64,000 bases of DNA, taken from contig JAQWPT010000005.1 in NCBI GenBank assembly GCA_029245245.1, positions 62,001-126,000 on the forward strand, in the 5' to 3' direction. The notes beneath the pieces are model-generated. The model was not told where the DNA came from. It worked only from the letters and a program-made list of their open reading frames with translations, and made no database searches. This document shows, in pieces, positions 30,800-38,951 of this stretch. The stretch is from Phycisphaerales bacterium. Its GTDB lineage: Bacteria > Planctomycetota > Phycisphaerae > Phycisphaerales > SM1A02. The stretch's first letter is position 1. Every line of letters starts with the position of its first letter. Position numbers and translations under genes: made by a program.

Positions 30800-33700
30800 T
30801 CAGGATCCCAGTGCGGCGGAGAGTTCGGCGGCAGTCATGTTGCTCTGCGTAGAACCACTCTTGAGAATCCGCTGCATGGTTGTCGTCCGGGCGTAATCCA
30901 TCTCGGTCGGGTTCAGGCCACTGGCCTCGAGATCCTGGTACACGTCACCAAGTCCATTGACGTAGTCACGTGCCTTGGCATCGCCTGCTCCGCTGTCGAG
31001 CCACGTGCGGAAGCCGCTGCCTGAGCCATCATTTCCAGTGGAGTCGCTGTACTTCGTCCAGGCGTTCTGGATCGAGTTCGAGAGCGATGCGGTCTGGTTC
31101 TCTTCAAGGATGGCGATGGCGTCGCCGGGCTGCTTTGTCAGAACGCCCTGGTAGCGGATAAGTGCCTGTTCGACGATCTTGCGGCTGAGGCGGGCCTGCT
31201 TGATGCGGATGTTGCCATTGCCCGGGTTCACGTTCACGGCATTGATCGTGAAGTCCGAGAGGACATGCGATCGACTCAGTGATCCGCGAAGTTCCGTGGC
31301 CGATGAGGTTGGTACTTCGACGTCGATCCCCAGGTCCTGGAGGTTGACGAGCACGATGGGACCCTCGATGTCGAGTTCATCGACGATGGTGGCGCCGCCT
31401 TCGGTGGCGCCGACCTGTGATCCTTCAGCAATGATCAGCGACGCATCGCTGGGGTTGACCGGGATCGGGGTTGGTCCAGGAGTCGGTCCAGGAGTCGGTC
31501 CGGGAGTCGGTCCGGGAGTCGGTCCAGGTCCGGGGCCGGGTCCAGGTCCAGGTCCAGGTCCGGGCCCGGGTTGCTGGGTTGCCTGAAGGATGAGGACCTT
31601 TGATCCCCAGTAGAACATGGCGTTGTCCAAGGGGGATTGCTGCCACCAGACGAAGTCCTTGAGGGTCGAACTTTCGGACGGGGAGGTGTCCACCGAGGCG
31701 AACCAGGGAAGACCCCCTGTGCCGACCAGATCAGGCGTGCTCGTGAAGTCGATCTTTCCACCGGCGACGAAGTTGACGACGAAGCTGGGCAGGATGATGC
31801 CCCGATCGTCAAGGATCTCAATCGCTTCTCGCAGCAGGATCGTGATGACCGGTGCATCGACCAGCATGTTTCCGAGGGTGGAGATGTCGTTGATCGTGAT
31901 CTGGCCGTTGAGGGCCCGCAGGGTCAGGTCGCCCAACTGGCTGAACTTCTGGTTCTGCCCCAGGACGATGCTGCCATTGTCGGAGACGACCTCCATGTTG
32001 CTGGAAAGTCCGACGATATTCGCGATCATCGTCAGGTCACCGTGGTAATCGTTCAGGAAGATGTCGTTCACGGCGTGAACCGTGTTGCCGTTGAGCACGA
32101 CCACATGCCTCTGAGCAGAGGTGAGCTCGATCGAGTCGAGTGGGTTGACGCCGCCGATGTCGCCGTCGATGTAGATGTTGGCACCGGAGTGGACGGCCAG
32201 TTTCCCGACACCCGCCGACGTGGTATCGATGTCGCCCATGACGTTGATGTCGCCATCAACGGTCCGCATCAGCGTGTATGGCGAGTTGTCGAGGGTCAGG
32301 GAACCGTTGATGTTGATGTCGCCGTCGACCCAGGAGATCAGCTGGGCGGTTGCGCCGTCGATGACCACTTCGCCGTTGTAGGTCTGCGACCCATTGGTCC
32401 AGACGTTGATCATGGGCCAGGTTGGATCGAGGTTGATGGCGTCGGGCGCGGTGAAGATTGCGTCTCCGTTGATGTCCATCAGGCTGGTGTGGATGTTGAC
32501 GGAACCGGTCCCGCCGAGGCCGGCTTCGGCGTCGAGGTCCTGGAGACCGGTGATGGCGGCCTCGAAGTTGACATCTTCGCCTGCAAGCAGGGTCGCATCA
32601 TGTCGTCGGGCGCCACCATTGAGTGCGAAGCTGTCGCGGATCCGTACGGAACCAGTGGTGGATTCAAGAACGAGGTCGCCATCGAGCGGATCGAGAATCT
32701 GCGTGCCGACCTGTGACTGGCAGTTGACGGGGCTGTCGAGCATGTCGGAAAAGGAACCCAGCGACAGGTCGTCGGCTTCAGTATCACTCAGCGAATAACC
32801 GGTTATCGCGAATTGCGCGGAGAGGTCGCTGTTGCGGGCCGTAACGGACAGTTCGCCATCGGCGACGGGGCCTCCAAGCTTGGTCGTCGCCCGGTAGAAG
32901 ACCTTGTTTCCGCTGATGTCGACTTCGCCGCCCTGGTCACCAAAGAGGGTTGACGCGATTGCATCGACCGTCGAATTGGAGTGGAAGTAGGTCGTGCCGT
33001 CGGAGGTGTCTACCGAGATGGTGCCGGCATTGCCGTGCATCGAGTCGACGGACAGTTGGCTGTGACGGCCGAAGAACGCGTTTCGCACGGCGTTGATGTC
33101 GATGCTGCCGGCTTCGGATGCCCCGAACTCGTCTTCATTTGCACTGATGAGTCCATTGGAGACGACGACATCGGAGCCGATGGTGATGGACCCGGCCACG
33201 CCGTTGCTGGTGTCCGCTCGCACCTGTGAACCTCGCCGGTTCAGGACGGTTCCGCCTGTGGCGGCCATCTCGAGACTGCCGCCATCCGCGTCGATGCTGC
33301 TGCCGAATGTATTGTGGATCGCGATGCCGTGCAGGTCACCGGCCCCGAGGAGGATCTGCCCGTTGGAGGCGCCTCCCGTGGAAATGGATCCCCTGTTCTT
33401 GATCGAGGAACTGCCGAGGGTCCGAGGCGTGACGGTGCCCTGGGTTGGGTTCGAGGGGTCGAGGTCCTGACCATCGATCTTCAGGTGGACATGGTCACCG
33501 AGGCGGCTGATGAGCACCTCGTCGTTGCCGGTGCTCATGGTGATCAATGGAGCTTCGACGGCGGCGCCGGACTTGACCAGAATGGCCCTGCTCTTGCGTC
33601 CTCCCACGAAGTGGAGTTCCTGAGCGTTCCACGCGGCCCCGGAGGAGATCTCGATGCGCTTGCTGCTCGAGAGGTTGGTGAATCGATCGGTGCCCGCCAT

Positions 33701-34138
33701 GAAGTCACCGTTGGACATGTCGCCAATGGAGGCATAGAGGCGGCCGACGTTCATGATGCTGCCGCTCTTGAATGCGATGCCGTTTCGATTGACAAGGTAG
33801 ATGTGACCGGCGGCACCCATGAGGCCCCGGAAGGTCGAGGGCTTGTTCCCGGTGACGCGGTTGAGAACTCTCCAGTTGGAGGCCATGTTCAGGAAGTTGA
33901 CCTGCTCACCGCTGCCGATGCTGAACTTGTTCCAATCGATGATGACGTTCGGTTGATGAACGTCGATGGTCATGTTCGAGCCGTAGTGGATCGTGGCGGC
34001 CGTTGGGTCCACGGTGCCACCGGAGGGGTTTGCTCCAGCCGTCGTGGCGAGCATCCCCAGGGTCAACGTGCAGCAGAACGTGATCTGCTTCAACGGAGAA
34101 ACAGCGTGGTGATACGTGCGATTTGCCAGGCTCTTCAT
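30800..34138 (-). CDS. TpsA-type exoprotein with filamentous-haemagglutinin N-terminal domain
   Basis: 1112 residues. After a long signal peptide (KQITFCCTLTLGMLATTAGA) comes the TPS secretion domain: TIHYGSNMTIDVHQPNVIID, then FNKFSIGS-like WNKFSIGSGEQVNFLN, LNRVTGNKPSTFRGLM and IYLVNRNGIAFKSGS. These mark export by two-partner secretion. The middle has imperfect beta-helix repeats full of Gly, Asn and Asp. A Pro-Gly/Pro-Thr tract (encoded near 31468-31570) precedes a ~150-residue C-terminal helical domain. ATG 34138 follows AAGGGA. The TpsB transporter gene is directly upstream in the same direction. Likely a surface adhesin or matrix fibre (inference). Confidence 0.88.
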   Translation of the reverse strand: MKSLANRTYHHAVSPLKQITFCCTLTLGMLATTAGANPSGGTVDPTAATIHYGSNMTIDVHQPNVIIDWNKFSIGSGEQVNFLNMASNWRVLNRVTGNKPSTFRGLMGAAGHIYLVNRNGIAFKSGSIMNVGRLYASIGDMSNGDFMAGTDRFTNLSSSKRIEISSGAAWNAQELHFVGGRKSRAILVKSGAAVEAPLITMSTGNDEVLISRLGDHVHLKIDGQDLDPSNPTQGTVTPRTLGSSSIKNRGSISTGGASNGQILLGAGDLHGIAIHNTFGSSIDADGGSLEMAATGGTVLNRRGSQVRADTSNGVAGSITIGSDVVVSNGLISANEDEFGASEAGSIDINAVRNAFFGRHSQLSVDSMHGNAGTISVDTSDGTTYFHSNSTVDAIASTLFGDQGGEVDISGNKVFYRATTKLGGPVADGELSVTARNSDLSAQFAITGYSLSDTEADDLSLGSFSDMLDSPVNCQSQVGTQILDPLDGDLVLESTTGSVRIRDSFALNGGARRHDATLLAGEDVNFEAAITGLQDLDAEAGLGGTGSVNIHTSLMDINGDAIFTAPDAINLDPTWPMINVWTNGSQTYNGEVVIDGATAQLISWVDGDININGSLTLDNSPYTLMRTVDGDINVMGDIDTTSAGVGKLAVHSGANIYIDGDIGGVNPLDSIELTSAQRHVVVLNGNTVHAVNDIFLNDYHGDLTMIANIVGLSSNMEVVSDNGSIVLGQNQKFSQLGDLTLRALNGQITINDISTLGNMLVDAPVITILLREAIEILDDRGIILPSFVVNFVAGGKIDFTSTPDLVGTGGLPWFASVDTSPSESSTLKDFVWWQQSPLDNAMFYWGSKVLILQATQQPGPGPGPGPGPGPGPGPTPGPTPGPTPGPTPGPTPIPVNPSDASLIIAEGSQVGATEGGATIVDELDIEGPIVLVNLQDLGIDVEVPTSSATELRGSLSRSHVLSDFTINAVNVNPGNGNIRIKQARLSRKIVEQALIRYQGVLTKQPGDAIAILEENQTASLSNSIQNAWTKYSDSTGNDGSGSGFRTWLDSGAGDAKARDYVNGLGDVYQDLEASGLNPTEMDYARTTTMQRILKSGSTQSNMTAAELSAALGS
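31468..31570 (-). repeat. Tandem repeat encoding Pro-Gly / Pro-Thr-Pro-Gly tract of TpsA
   Basis: Units of CCAGGT (about nine, encoding PGPG) pass into 12-base units reading GGAGTCGGTCCA-like (encoding TPGP). The tract is a flexible spacer in the protein. Short identical units make copy-number change likely, and all units keep the frame. Confidence 0.75.
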
Positions 34139-34360
34139 GAGGTGTCCCTTCCCGTTGTTGGCAGAGTGGATCCGGCCCATTTGCCCCCTTGGATCCTGCA
34201 CTCGCCGACGTTTCAAGATACCACGCAGGCGGCGAAAGGGCCTTGGAATTGATGTGATTTCACGTCTGATAACGAGGCCAGCCCGCAAAGGTGGACTTGA
34301 AATCGCCAATTCATTTTGGGATTGGTTCTGACGGAAGAGGCTGTTCAGCCGTGATCCCGG

Positions 34361-36289
34361 TCAGAAGGTGAACGTGCCGCTGACGTAGAGTCGCTCGTCA
34401 CCGACTTCGACACCAGCTGCTGGAAGATCCTGCAGTGGGAATCCCCAGTCGAGACGGAATCGGAAGTTCGTCCGGAAGAGGAACTCGAGCCCGACGCCGG
34501 CGCCCATGAGGGTGTCGTCGTTCTCGTAGAAGAGCGGGTCCGACTGCATGAGCAGTCCGTAATCAAAGAATGCGCAGAGCATGAGATCCCAGTCGGTGCG
34601 ACCGTACACGTGCTGCGGTGCGGCGCGGAACTGTCCGCCGAAGAGTTCCATCGGCTCGGGATTGACCGCGAAGGCGCGGGGAATGTGGTACCGGTATTCA
34701 ACCTTGGCGAGGATGGAAGAGTCGCCGGCGGCGACGGATTGCGGGTACCCACGAACGGAGTACATGCCGCCAAGTACCTGCTGGAACTGGGGGAGCAGGC
34801 GACTGCCGAAGGAATACTGTCCGCCGAAGTACAGCATGATCTCATGTGCGAGTGTCGATGTGGCGGGAGTGTTGGGATCGGCGAATCCTTCCGGATTCAG
34901 CAGTGGTTCCAGGAAGAACCACTGGACGGCGCTCCAATTCATTCTTGCCCAGCGGTCGGCGGTATCGGGTCGACTGCCCAGTTCGAAGAGCGTCTGCTGG
35001 TCATGGCCCAGCAGGTTGAACTCAAGACCGAGGGAACCACTGAAATTCGACCAGTCGGCAAGGTGGTCGGCCTCGAGCATGACGTAGGGAACCAGGAAGT
35101 TGGCGCCCTCGTCGGTGAGCAGGAGATTGTTCGTGACCTCCAGGTGCTGCAGTCGCATGCCGCCGACGATGTCGACGAACAGCGCACCGTCCTGGACGAG
35201 ATTTCCGGTGAGGTTGCCGTCGATTGACCACGAGTTTCCCGTGAAGGCATCGTCCAGCACGCCGAACTCGTCGGCGAAGAATTCGCTCCAGTCGCCACCG
35301 ATGGACCAGCGGAGCCGGTCCGTGCCCGGCACATTGGCCGTGTATTCGGCGAAAACGGCGTTGGAGGAGCTGAAATCAGACGTGAGGTACTCCACGGAGA
35401 AGGTGTCGTCGTTCCCAGTGGCCTGGGATGTGAAGAGCCCGTACCGCTGTCGGAAGTACCCCTCCTGCTTGGTTCCGGTGTTCGAAAACTCCATGAAGAG
35501 CGCGAGCGGCTTGTTCTCCCAGACCATGAAGTCGAGTCCGACGCCGCCGGGTTGCGATGAAGCGCCCACGGAGGCCTCGACGTTTCGGCCGGGATGGCGG
35601 CTGAGATAGAGGAAGTAGTCTTCCAACTGCTTGCGCCAGAGCAGATCGCCTTCCTTGCCCTCGGTGGCGGGTCGCAGGGGTGCGTTGTCGAGGATGTGCT
35701 TGTGGGCGGGATGATTCACCCGCTCCTCGTCCGGGATGCGTTCGCCGGAGGCGAGGGTTCGGATTTCCTGGACCCGGCCGACAGCGATGTCGAAGGTCAA
35801 CGTCGTGTCCCCACCGGAACGGAGATCGGCTCCCATGGAATCGGGCTTGTCCGAGATCTGAGCTGGATCAACCGTGACGAAGACTCCCATGAGCCCGTCT
35901 CCGATGAGTTTCGCACTCATCGTCGTGGAAATGGTGGCCAGTGCAGAGGAGTAGTAGACCGCTTCACCCTGTTCATTGAGTTGCTGCAGGCTCAGAAGTT
36001 CCAACTTGAGACCGGGTCGTGGGCCAACCCATCCGTCCGGCGTGCGGGCGAGCGCGATGGGCGTGGTGAGCATGGACGCTTCCTCGGGAAGGTCCGGGTG
36101 TTCCCATCGCCAGGAAATGGTGATGTTCGAAGCCTTGTAGGGCAGCCCGTCGATGTCCGGATCGGGGCCACCATCACGTGGCGCAGTGGCTGCTGCCGGG
36201 GGATTCGAGTCCTGTGCATCTGCAAGCCCACTAAGCATGGGCCAGAGAAGGCAGGTCATGAGGCAGATCCGTCGCGTGTTGATAGTCAT
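34361..36289 (-). CDS. TpsB-type outer-membrane transporter (ShlB/FhaC family)
   Basis: 642 residues. Signal peptide (MTCLLWPMLSGLADA). Residues ~60-220 carry a POTRA-like region: WRWEHPDLPEEASML ... LEDYFLYLSRHPGRN, then VEASVGASSQPGGVGLDFMV. The rest is a 16-strand-type barrel with alternating hydrophobics, including GGMYSVRGYPQSVAAGDSS, the VRGY motif of loop L6 in Omp85 transporters. It ends LYVSGTFTF with a terminal Phe, as outer-membrane barrels do. The POTRA region is hard to delimit. It should export TpsA, encoded 222 bases downstream. ATG 36289 has a GGAG 11 bases upstream. Its presence argues for a true outer membrane here. Confidence 0.9.
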   Translation of the reverse strand: MTINTRRICLMTCLLWPMLSGLADAQDSNPPAAATAPRDGGPDPDIDGLPYKASNITISWRWEHPDLPEEASMLTTPIALARTPDGWVGPRPGLKLELLSLQQLNEQGEAVYYSSALATISTTMSAKLIGDGLMGVFVTVDPAQISDKPDSMGADLRSGGDTTLTFDIAVGRVQEIRTLASGERIPDEERVNHPAHKHILDNAPLRPATEGKEGDLLWRKQLEDYFLYLSRHPGRNVEASVGASSQPGGVGLDFMVWENKPLALFMEFSNTGTKQEGYFRQRYGLFTSQATGNDDTFSVEYLTSDFSSSNAVFAEYTANVPGTDRLRWSIGGDWSEFFADEFGVLDDAFTGNSWSIDGNLTGNLVQDGALFVDIVGGMRLQHLEVTNNLLLTDEGANFLVPYVMLEADHLADWSNFSGSLGLEFNLLGHDQQTLFELGSRPDTADRWARMNWSAVQWFFLEPLLNPEGFADPNTPATSTLAHEIMLYFGGQYSFGSRLLPQFQQVLGGMYSVRGYPQSVAAGDSSILAKVEYRYHIPRAFAVNPEPMELFGGQFRAAPQHVYGRTDWDLMLCAFFDYGLLMQSDPLFYENDDTLMGAGVGLEFLFRTNFRFRLDWGFPLQDLPAAGVEVGDERLYVSGTFTF

Positions 36290-36634: not shown

Positions 36635-36871
36635 ATGAATGCACGGATGATGACAAAAATCGCACTTGGCGGCCTCGCACTTGCGCTCCTCAACGGGTGT
36701 GCAACTCGCGATTCCCAACCTTCCCACGTGGCCCTGTCCTCCATGGAGTACGCCACGAACGTGGACCCACTCTGCCTGGCGTCCGGTGATTCGCTCGGCA
36801 TGGAACTGCACGTCTGGCACGTGGTCTCGACGGATCCCGATCCGACCTGGCTGCTGGCTGTCAGCGACTGA
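36635..36871 (+). CDS. Small lipoprotein, 78 aa
   Basis: ATG 36635 with AGAGGA at ~9 bases. Signal peptide ending in a lipobox (LLNGC, Cys22). The mature part is only ~57 residues, ending HVVSTDPDPTWLLAVSD, with no known domain. A rho-independent terminator follows directly, so it is a single-gene unit. It may be a small structural lipoprotein of the envelope (inference). Confidence 0.6.
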   Translation: MNARMMTKIALGGLALALLNGCATRDSQPSHVALSSMEYATNVDPLCLASGDSLGMELHVWHVVSTDPDPTWLLAVSD

Positions 36872-36935: not shown

Positions 36936-38951
36936 TCAGCGACCGCTGTAGATCGTCCGCAACTGCTCAAGGGCCTTTTTTTCTCGCCGGTTGACGGCGG
37001 TCGCCTCGAGTTGATTGATTCTGACCACGACCTGGCGATCGCCCTCGGTGCGTGCGAGCACGGGAGCAAGTCGGCGCAGATCACCGGCTGGATAGCGTGG
37101 CCGGATGGCGGCGGACATGATGCGGGCGGTTTCCGCGTCGGTGTCAGGACCGAGGGTCGGCCCCATCAGGGACCAGAGCATGTCTCGATCCCGGCTGGTC
37201 GGTTTCGCCAGCATCGTCCAGGCCAGCATGAACCCGTCGCGATCACCCCGGCGAAAGAGGGAGCCAAGGGCAGCCTCGGCACTGGCCGGGCCGGTCCCCT
37301 TGTCCTTGACGGCTCGATGCCAGAGGTCCATGGCGAGTCCATCGAGGTTGGTGAGGACCATCAGCTTGATGGCCTTGGCGAACTGTTCATCACCGGGATT
37401 TGCCAGGGCCAACTCAAGTGCATTCTGTGCGGCCTCGATCAGGTTTTCCGCACCATGTCCGTTGATCCCGGTCTCGGAGCGCCTGGAATTCGAGGGACCA
37501 CCACTGAGCATCATCGGGTCGCCGAAGAGGTTGACTCTCCAGGCGACGGAGAGGGGAGCTTCACCCTCCCACATGCGCACGGACGGTCCAAGTGGGATGT
37601 TGCTGACGATGCGTCGGGCCACCTCGTAGGCGGGGCGAAATCCACTGAGCAGAGGTTCGTGTGATGACCCGTAGACCGCATAGGCCCCGTTGCGGAGCCA
37701 TCGACCGCCAATGCTCTCGGGGTCGTCGGGGCGCTTCATCGACCAGCTGTGAATGAGGTAGAGAAAGGCGGGTCGATCGAGAATCGGCACCTCGTAGGGC
37801 GAGGCGCGGTTGGTCCCGAGGTCGAAGAAATCCGCGTTGCCTCCCGAGTTCAGGTAGATCTGATCCGCATCAAGTCCCGTTGCCACGGCATCCTGGAAGG
37901 TGGCGAGGTCGAGATTCTCATGCAGGGTGGTGGTGTACCCGTCGTGCTTGAACATGGCCTCGGTCTGAGCCATGGCATAGGCGGTGCGATCGGGTTCGTG
38001 CTCGTAGGAGTCGCCGAGCCACACGCTGGTGCGATTGAGGAAGAAGCTGCACATGGCCGCATACAGGGACGAACGTTGTCCACCGAGAATCCAACCCGTG
38101 AAGGCGAATCGGGTGCCATCGGCATGTCGCCCGAGCACATCAGTGATCGCCTTGGGGCCGTTGAGAATCTCGCGAGGAAGGTGCTCGGGCAGTTCACCGC
38201 CGATGTCGATGTCGGTGCGTGCCGACATTGATCGACAGATCGTCAGGAAATCCAGGCGATCGCCGACCGTGGCGTACGGAGTGCCGGTGCTCTTGAGCAT
38301 TGCATCGATCTGGTCCATCAGCGCCTTGGTTCGTGGTCCCGAAAGGACGTCGCCGGGGTCGCCGAGATCCCCTTCCAGGTAGAACAGGTACTGGCCGCGG
38401 GCCGCCGCCAGCACGGCGGCTGCCGGCCAGGCAGGATCCTTCAGCGAGGTGAAGACGGCTCCCAGCGGCTGGAAGGATCGCTCGTCGTACACCTCCTGGA
38501 TCGTGGTGCCGAATCCCTGTTCCAGTCTCCAGGAATTGGCGATCGCGCGATCGATCAGGGCCCGGCGTTCCTCGTGGTCGTTGGGCAGCGAACCAACGGA
38601 ACTTCGCCGGAAGACGGCAAGGGGTTCGTAGGCTCTGATGAACATGGGGGCATACACATCGTCGTCGTAGAGGATTGGCCAGCGTCCCTTGACGCTCCAG
38701 CGGGACAGCTCGTCAACAAAGGTTGCGGCATCCGGGACGAGAACGACCTGCTTGGAGATGGGGTTCAGGTTCTGCGTGATCCTGACATCCAGGGACATGC
38801 GTCGAGCCCAGTGGACATGCTCCTTGTATGACTTGGGCTGTGTATTATTGATGGTTGTCGTGGGCGACTGGCTGACCATGGCCTGCAGTGGCAGGCTCGG
38901 GACCAGAACGAGGCAGGGCAGCAGGGCAAGAAGCAGTCGTGGGTATCGCAT
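36936..38951 (-). CDS. Large secreted protein, possibly related to gingipain-type C25 peptidases
   Basis: 671 residues with an N-terminal signal (LLLALLPCLVLVPSLPLQA). The first ~500 residues look like one large alpha/beta domain: DVRITQNLNPISKQVVLVP, LFYLEGDLGDPGDVLSG, then DQIYLNSGGNADFFDLG, FLYLIHSWSMKRPDD and WLRNGAYAVYGSSHEPLL, ending VNLFGDPMMLSGGP. The order of these segments recalls the caspase-like C25 domain, where GHG and a Cys lie at the two strand ends. Here those places read NSGGN and LIHSW, so catalytic residues seem absent. The remaining C-terminal part is helical. The family link is a guess from segment order. Confidence 0.6.
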   Translation of the reverse strand: MRYPRLLLALLPCLVLVPSLPLQAMVSQSPTTTINNTQPKSYKEHVHWARRMSLDVRITQNLNPISKQVVLVPDAATFVDELSRWSVKGRWPILYDDDVYAPMFIRAYEPLAVFRRSSVGSLPNDHEERRALIDRAIANSWRLEQGFGTTIQEVYDERSFQPLGAVFTSLKDPAWPAAAVLAAARGQYLFYLEGDLGDPGDVLSGPRTKALMDQIDAMLKSTGTPYATVGDRLDFLTICRSMSARTDIDIGGELPEHLPREILNGPKAITDVLGRHADGTRFAFTGWILGGQRSSLYAAMCSFFLNRTSVWLGDSYEHEPDRTAYAMAQTEAMFKHDGYTTTLHENLDLATFQDAVATGLDADQIYLNSGGNADFFDLGTNRASPYEVPILDRPAFLYLIHSWSMKRPDDPESIGGRWLRNGAYAVYGSSHEPLLSGFRPAYEVARRIVSNIPLGPSVRMWEGEAPLSVAWRVNLFGDPMMLSGGPSNSRRSETGINGHGAENLIEAAQNALELALANPGDEQFAKAIKLMVLTNLDGLAMDLWHRAVKDKGTGPASAEAALGSLFRRGDRDGFMLAWTMLAKPTSRDRDMLWSLMGPTLGPDTDAETARIMSAAIRPRYPAGDLRRLAPVLARTEGDRQVVVRINQLEATAVNRREKKALEQLRTIYSGR

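What the first reader, a model, noticed from the sequence alone, without database searches (positions are those of the whole stretch)
30800..36289. Two-partner secretion operon (TpsB, TpsA) in a planctomycete-like genome
A complete TpsB barrel with VRGY loop and terminal Phe lies directly before a TpsA with a full haemagglutinin-type secretion domain. TPS is best known in Proteobacteria. Its presence implies a working outer membrane and Omp85-type export, and the exported protein has an unusual C-terminal helical domain after a Pro-Gly spacer, not the usual adhesin end. The POTRA region of TpsB is divergent.
Basis: partly seen in the sequence, partly recalled or inferred. Interest (0 to 1): 0.5.

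Follow-up and report, generated by a model that had tools for sequence, protein, structure and literature searches.

The report
Planctomycete two-partner secretion with end-domain
This bacterium carries what looks like a genuine two-gene export system that pushes a long protein through its outer membrane, and in this bacterial group the exported protein nearly always ends in a conserved helical domain that the family libraries searched here do not name and that may hold it at the cell surface.

Summary
The finding holds up. TpsB (34361-36289, minus) and TpsA (30800-34138, minus) form a type Vb (two-partner) secretion pair in a planctomycete genome. TpsA has the TPS secretion domain at 73.8 bits. 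The TpsB model has a 16-strand barrel and two POTRA-like domains; its best solved matches are FhaC and CdiB. The pair is common in Phycisphaerales: 217 related TpsB stretches were found, and 75 of the 78 loci kept bear planctomycete titles. Two features look new. First, an about 160-residue helical C-terminal domain (CTD) ends 50 of 53 complete, non-identical TpsA. It has no accepted Pfam or NCBIfam hit and no clear solved fold. Second, the outer POTRA of TpsB is enlarged, unmatched by Pfam POTRA_2 in 46 of 46 members, and present in 2-3 copies in 14 of 92 TpsB. CTD and this TpsB type co-occur: 9 of 11 genomes with the type have the CTD, against 1 weak partial hit in the other 283. I infer that the CTD is a docking or retention module; a surface-delivered module, as in FhaB, is the main rival.

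The parts
34361..36289 (-). tpsB gene: outer-membrane TpsB transporter, 642 aa
   Evidence: Pfam ShlB 30.3 bits; 46 of 46 homologues match ShlB; model pLDDT 86.2; best PDB matches FhaC 4ql0 E 2.0e-24 and CdiB 6wim E 2.0e-23
36215..36289 (-). TpsB residues 1-25, signal-peptide-like start
   Evidence: by eye from the translation; no predictor was run; low pLDDT
35774..36148 (-). TpsB residues 48-172, enlarged POTRA1 ('P1'), in 2-3 copies in some relatives
   Evidence: alignments and HMM counts; strands and helices in the model; not matched by Pfam POTRA_2
35555..35773 (-). TpsB residues 173-245, POTRA2
34364..35506 (-). TpsB residues 262-642, barrel ending in Phe
34745..34756 (-). VRGY motif of TpsB (residues 512-515)
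   Evidence: R513, G514, Y515 identical in 46 of 46; ShlB and CdiB/FhaC profile matches lie here
30800..34138 (-). tpsA gene: TpsA protein, 1112 aa
33347..34036 (-). TPS secretion domain, residues 35-264
   Evidence: PF05860 73.8 bits; solved relatives; the only PF05860 match in the genome
31574..33346 (-). passenger, residues 265-855, presumed beta-helix
   Evidence: inferred from the family; similar segments in relatives; not modelled here
31448..31570 (-). Pro-Gly/Thr spacer, residues about 857-897
   Evidence: sequence; Pro-rich stretch just before the CTD in 16 of 50 complete TpsA and in 0 of 50 elsewhere between TPS domain and that stretch
30857..31345 (-). C-terminal helical domain (CTD), residues 932-1094, followed by an 18-residue tail
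   Evidence: 50 of 53 complete non-identical TpsA; model mean pLDDT 83.3, 133 of 208 residues >= 90; R983 and E1079 identical in 43 of 43

Best explanation
A two-partner (type Vb) secretion system of a phycisphaeral planctomycete. Both proteins would cross the inner membrane by Sec; the TPS domain of TpsA would be caught by the POTRA domains of TpsB, and the passenger would be threaded through the 16-strand barrel and fold outside as a rod (established for FhaC/FhaB and HMW; inferred here). The group-specific part is the end of TpsA: a separate helical domain (CTD), in about a third of cases after a Pro-rich spacer. I propose that the CTD stays with TpsB, docking on or below its POTRA region, so that the rod is held at the cell surface instead of being shed. 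Shown: genes, domains, predicted TpsB fold, near-universal CTD at the C-terminus, and co-occurrence of CTD and this TpsB type. Inferred: export, rod shape, and the retention role of the CTD. I hold the TPS part at about 0.95; the confidence below is for the whole statement with the retention role.
For: TPS and ShlB matches. TpsB model closest to CdiB (Z 28.5, 5.5 A over 476 residues) and FhaC (Z 28.3, 6.8 A over 448), with BamA (27.1) and TamA (26.7) close. In 81 of 92 non-identical TpsB loci a TPS-domain ORF follows on the same strand within 600 nt. CTD at the C-terminus of 50 of 53 complete non-identical TpsA, in proteins of 592 to 3196 aa; in the loci fetched with TpsB only (L082-L159), 40 of 41 complete TpsA (my count). 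Over the same 294 genomes, 9 of the 11 with a TpsB of at least 539 bits have the CTD; the other 283 have one weak partial hit. CTD distances track POTRA2 distances beyond barrel and TPS divergence (partial r 0.25, permutation p 0.0005, 46 operons). In L088 and L089 the gene after tpsB encodes a protein with the CTD but no TPS domain.
Against: Nothing here shows where the CTD sits. It diverges fast (mean pairwise identity 23%, against 48% for the barrel), which fits a tight docking surface poorly. It lacks a conserved Cys pair (45 of 59 have no Cys), the hook of HMW1 and HxuA, and the genome has no LapG family match. L070 has the enlarged POTRA1 but no detectable CTD. Barrel and CTD co-vary nearly as much (0.21) and P1 and CTD less (0.13), and the positive control POTRA2-TPS is not significant (0.09, p 0.13) in the same test. 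Co-occurrence is confounded by shared descent, and the three genomes outside the class are MAGs in which mis-binned contigs cannot be excluded.
Confidence: 0.5

Rival explanations
1. The CTD is a functional tip that is carried out to the surface and binds a target, as now claimed for the CT domain of FhaB, which also follows a Pro-rich region at the extreme C-terminus.
For: Same order of parts as FhaB: TPS, rod, Pro-rich region, compact CT (PMC13232309, passages seen). Fast divergence of the CTD. CTD on proteins without a TPS domain in L088 and L089.
Against: One domain family ends proteins from 592 to 3196 aa across many genomes, which suggests a shared machine role more than a target-specific tip. 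CTD distances co-vary with TpsB parts (modest).
Confidence: 0.3
2. The CTD is an export or folding aid (internal chaperone or translocation stop) that is later cut off.
For: C-terminal place in nearly all complete TpsA; a review says that folding of FHA's mature end needs its non-secreted C-terminal portion (PMC5422565, passage).
Against: No protease gene recognised beside the pair among the genes checked; cleavage sites were not searched beyond one recalled LapG-like motif, absent in the window protein.
Confidence: 0.12
3. A contact-dependent inhibition (CDI-like) system with the C-terminal domain as toxin.
For: TpsB resembles CdiB.
Against: The C-terminal domain is one conserved family; the gene after tpsA is YggS-like on the opposite strand and ends 9 nt from tpsA, so no immunity gene follows.
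Confidence: 0.03
4. TpsB is a general Omp85 protein (BamA or TamA type) that happens to lie beside a haemagglutinin-like gene.
For: BamA and TamA structures score nearly as high as FhaC and CdiB; 14 of 46 homologues also match Omp85.
Against: 46 of 46 match ShlB; FhaC and CdiB fill the first five Foldseek places; another Omp85 gene exists; 81 of 92 TpsB loci have a TPS ORF next to them.
Confidence: 0.03

Closest known systems
FhaC/FhaB (Bordetella filamentous haemagglutinin)
   Same: TpsB fold (FhaC 4ql0, Foldseek E 2.0e-24); TPS domain; Pro-rich region followed by a conserved domain at the extreme C-terminus (PMC13232309 passages)
   Different: No H1-like helix in the model (residues 1-37 of low confidence; the FhaC helix is recalled); enlarged POTRA1; CTD of about 160 residues, almost all helical, whereas FhaB CT is about 95 residues with helices and strands
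HMW1A/B and HxuA/B
   Same: TPS domain matches solved HxuA and 2odl 'Adhesin' (that 2odl is HMW1 is recalled); a C-terminal part holds the protein at the cell
   Different: Their anchor is a disulfide loop in the TpsB pore (PMC5422565 passage); here no conserved Cys pair
CdrA (Pseudomonas aeruginosa)
   Same: A periplasmic C-terminal tail retains a TPS adhesin (PMC5422565 passage)
   Different: No LapG family protein found in this genome; no LapG-like motif (recalled pattern) in the last 260 residues of the window protein
CdiB/CdiA
   Same: CdiB 6wim is the top second-look match of TpsB (Z 28.5)
   Different: C-terminal domain conserved, not polymorphic; no adjacent immunity gene

Membership tests
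Two-partner secretion (type Vb) | TpsA with N-terminal TPS domain | tested here: met
   PF05860 73.8 bits over cut-off 33.5; TIGR01901 66.8 over 29.1
Two-partner secretion (type Vb) | TpsB of the ShlB/FhaC family encoded next to tpsA | tested here: met
   PF03865 30.3 bits over 22.7; 222 nt apart; same arrangement in 81 of 92 TpsB loci
Two-partner secretion (type Vb) | 16-strand barrel with conserved VRGY/F loop | tested here: met
   16 strands counted from the predicted model; VRGY at 512-515
Two-partner secretion (type Vb) | two POTRA domains | tested here: inconclusive
   Pfam POTRA_2 matches 0 of 46, but the model aligns with FhaC and CdiB from residue 38-49 on and shows two such domains
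Two-partner secretion (type Vb) | TpsB-dependent export of TpsA | not testable with these tools
   needs an experiment
HMW1/HxuA-type C-terminal anchor | disulfide-forming Cys pair in the C-terminal part | tested here: not met
   45 of 59 CTD-to-end segments have no Cys
FhaB CT domain | sequence or fold relation to FhaB CT | not tested
   FhaB CT was not fetched; only passages of PMC13232309 were read
CDI (CdiA/CdiB) | polymorphic C-terminal toxin with immunity gene downstream | tested here: not met
   conserved CTD; next gene YggS-like on the opposite strand

The most novel reading that the evidence does not exclude
This is a distinct TPS subtype in which both ends of the exported protein engage TpsB: the TPS domain at the start of export, and a helical C-terminal domain that docks on the POTRA region (with an enlarged, sometimes tandem POTRA1) at the end, so that TpsB is both export channel and permanent anchor without a disulfide hook.
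Probability: 0.25. Interest if true: 0.6.

Novelty: new variant of a known kind. Interest (0 to 1): 0.42.

Why it matters
It places a well-conserved TPS lineage in Planctomycetota; nothing I saw in the paper searches describes one there. It also gives a C-terminal domain present in nearly every complete TpsA of the group, so the question of how TPS proteins are kept at the surface without a disulfide hook or LapG control becomes testable with one deletion.

Tried and rejected
P0003 (36936-38951, minus) lies upstream of tpsB and I first suspected a C25-like partner (a recalled likeness; no Pfam or NCBIfam hit). It is found in 47 of 61 genomes searched, own genome included, many of them without the TPS pair, and lies beside tpsB in only six. 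Rejected as a part.

LapG-controlled release: no PF06035 match in the genome. Disulfide hook: no conserved Cys. Fold of the CTD: Foldseek best E 0.86; second look at most Z 4.6 (4.7 A over 95 residues, spider silk N-terminal domain), which the tool calls common for helical bundles. This is no clear match, not proof of a new fold; no library of predicted cellular structures was on hand. PDB sequence search with the CTD profile: best E 0.024, not trusted. Pfam and NCBIfam scans of the 43 CTDs gave only scattered families matching 1 or 2 members each, best E 0.00068 and 0.0017. Promoter and terminator scan: counts as in shuffles.

Partial Mantel tests are mixed. With barrel alone controlled: TPS-CTD 0.41, P2-CTD 0.31, P2-TPS 0.21, P1-CTD 0.16, P1-TPS 0.12, P1-P2 0.08. 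With barrel and the other TpsA domain controlled: P2-CTD 0.25 (p 0.0005), P1-CTD 0.13 (p 0.035), P2-TPS 0.09 (p 0.13), P1-TPS 0.06 (p 0.23); barrel-CTD 0.21 (p 0.0095). The positive control TPS-POTRA is thus not significant, and near-identical operons remain among the 46. I use this as weak support only.

Count mended on re-check: one search gave 13 of 81 TpsB with more than one P1, but that set held a duplicate and one split hit (L103). The recount on 92 non-identical TpsB gives 14 (8 with two, 6 with three) and 2 with none.

Papers: PMC4793230, PMC2702493, PMC7738311, PMC4827864, PMC5422565, PMC13232309 and PMC8286594 were seen as passages only; all others as search listings. The table passage of PMC4827864 lists the TPS family for Proteobacteria and Chlorobi only; PMC7738311 names a Phycisphaerales mafA homologue, not a TPS pair; figures and supplements were not seen, so a planctomycete T5bSS in PMC4793230's figures is not excluded.
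Full report
The observation. The window is G000:C31:62001-126000 of a 2.69 Mb genome in 38 contigs, 96% complete. Its nearest named relatives among the fetched loci are Phycisphaerales MAGs. On the minus strand lie tpsB (36289..34361, 642 aa) and, after 222 nt, tpsA (34138..30800, 1112 aa). TpsA has the TPS domain at residues 35-264 (PF05860, 73.8 bits against 33.5; TIGR01901, 66.8 against 29.1); its N-terminal part matches solved HxuA, 2odl 'Adhesin' and EtpA chains. It is the only PF05860 match in the genome. TpsB matches Pfam ShlB at 30.3 bits against 22.7, only at residues 487-535 around VRGY. Beyond tpsA a YggS-like gene (Pfam Ala_racemase_N) and a Rex-like gene lie on the opposite strand (the names YggS and Rex are recalled).

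TpsB. A model made with 46 homologues has mean pLDDT 86.2 and pTM 0.78; I count 16 barrel strands between residues 262 and 641 and two POTRA-like domains before them. The first five Foldseek matches are FhaC and CdiB entries (best E 2.0e-24). In the second look CdiB has Z 28.5 (5.5 A over 476 residues) and FhaC Z 28.3 (6.8 A over 448), with BamA at 27.1 and TamA at 26.7, as expected within one superfamily. All 46 members match ShlB and 14 also match Omp85. A separate Omp85 gene lies on contig C33.

The outer POTRA is enlarged. Residues 48-172 form a domain of about 120 residues; FhaC's POTRA1 has about 77 (recalled). None of 46 homologues matches Pfam POTRA_2 at E <= 0.01. It is the most variable part of TpsB (mean pairwise identity 33%, against 48% for POTRA2 and 48% for the barrel). 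Of 92 non-identical barrel ORFs in L042-L159, 76 have one copy, 8 two, 6 three and 2 none (L072, L073).

Distribution. TpsA-like matches occur in 29 of 61 genomes searched, own included; at least two of these (G037, G050) rest on the spacer alone. TpsB-like matches occur in 26 of 61, one of them weak (G029). The genome-contig scan with the TpsB alignment gave 217 relatives and kept 78 loci; 75 bear planctomycete titles, and L098, L102 and L152 are titled Cyanobacteria, Acidimicrobiales and Deltaproteobacteria, which I take for mislabelled MAGs without having tested it. Of 92 non-identical TpsB, 81 have a TPS-domain ORF downstream on the same strand within 600 nt; 11 do not: L052, L054, L065, L067, L071, L073, L088, L089, L119, L151, L156, some of them for want of contig. 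Across the phylum 25 of 294 genomes have a PF05860 match.

The C-terminal domain. An HMM grown from the window's C-terminus found 72 ORFs in L042-L159, duplicates included. Of 87 non-identical ORFs with a TPS domain, 53 are complete within their locus and 50 of these carry the CTD; after it come 11 to 45 residues, in two cases 77 and 110. The three without are L043 (a run of N interrupts the gene and the next ORF holds the CTD), L072 (only a sub-threshold hint) and L070 (a real exception). Of 34 ORFs cut by a locus or contig end, one has it. Some loci were fetched with the whole TpsA as query and so favour the CTD; in those fetched with TpsB only (L082-L159), 40 of 41 complete TpsA have it, the exception L087 being the same gapped gene as L043 (my count). 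Nine ORFs have the CTD without a TPS domain: four are cut upstream (L076, L077, L078, L080), two are the far side of the gapped gene (L043, L087), L081 starts near its contig's end, and L088 and L089 each have a small protein with a signal-like start and the CTD directly after tpsB. In L089 a tpsA follows; in L088 no TPS ORF was found.

The CTD model (208 residues with flank) has mean pLDDT 83.3, 133 residues at 90 or more, nine helices and two short strands. It has no accepted Pfam or NCBIfam family, no trustworthy PDB sequence match and no clear fold match. R983 and E1079 are identical in 43 of 43, D962 and G1074 in 39 of 43. In 16 of 50 complete proteins a stretch with 8 or more Pro in 25 lies within 140 residues before the CTD; none of the 50 has one in the rest of the passenger.

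CTD and TpsB type. Over the same 294 genomes, 11 have a TpsB scoring at least 539 bits with A3, and 9 of these have the CTD. The two without are G041 (its TpsA next to tpsB is L072) and G099 (TpsA cut by the contig end). Among the other 283 only G164 has a hit, partial and weak (E 1.9e-4). Three of the nine are outside the window's class: G122, G169, G200. There the two genes lie on different contigs, and these are MAGs with 1 to 6% estimated contamination, so mis-binning is possible. In class family f9 the TpsB of L168, L169 and L171 lack a detectable enlarged POTRA1, and their TpsA end in another, Cys-bearing segment without a CTD match. Shared descent explains much of this; it is a link, not proof of contact. 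Distance tests are mixed: CTD-POTRA2 0.25 (p 0.0005), CTD-barrel 0.21 (p 0.0095), CTD-POTRA1 0.13 (p 0.035), but the control POTRA2-TPS 0.09 (p 0.13).

Reading. That this is a TPS pair I hold at about 0.95. What the CTD does is open. The passages I read give known ways in which TPS proteins use their C-terminus: a disulfide-locked anchor in the pore (HMW1, HxuA) and a periplasmic tail cut by LapG (CdrA), both in PMC5422565, and FhaB's Pro-rich region with a CT of about 95 residues, which a 2026 preprint argues is displayed outside and acts in adhesion (PMC13232309). The window's layout is nearest to FhaB. I lean to retention because one domain family ends proteins of very different length and goes with the TpsB type; the fast divergence of the CTD and the CTD proteins without TPS domain are points for the rivals.

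Noticed in passing
L089:12349-13269 (+) and L088:12243-13106 (+): Small proteins (306 and 287 aa ORFs) with a signal-like start, a CHIPPGN..HTI motif and the CTD but no TPS domain, directly after tpsB; a tpsA follows in L089, none was found in L088.
   Followed up: partly
window 36936-38951 (-): 671-aa protein without Pfam or NCBIfam match, found in 47 of 61 genomes, next to tpsB only in six.
   Followed up: partly
L168, L169, L171: TPS pairs of another family of the class whose TpsA end in a different, mutually similar, Cys-bearing segment: lineage-specific ends may be general.
   Followed up: partly
window 36635-36871 (+): Short lipoprotein-like ORF (78 aa, LLNGC near the start) on the plus strand in the gap between tpsB and the 671-aa gene.
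   Followed up: no
L045, L064, L084, L085, L086, L090: TpsB proteins with three copies of the enlarged POTRA1.
   Followed up: partly
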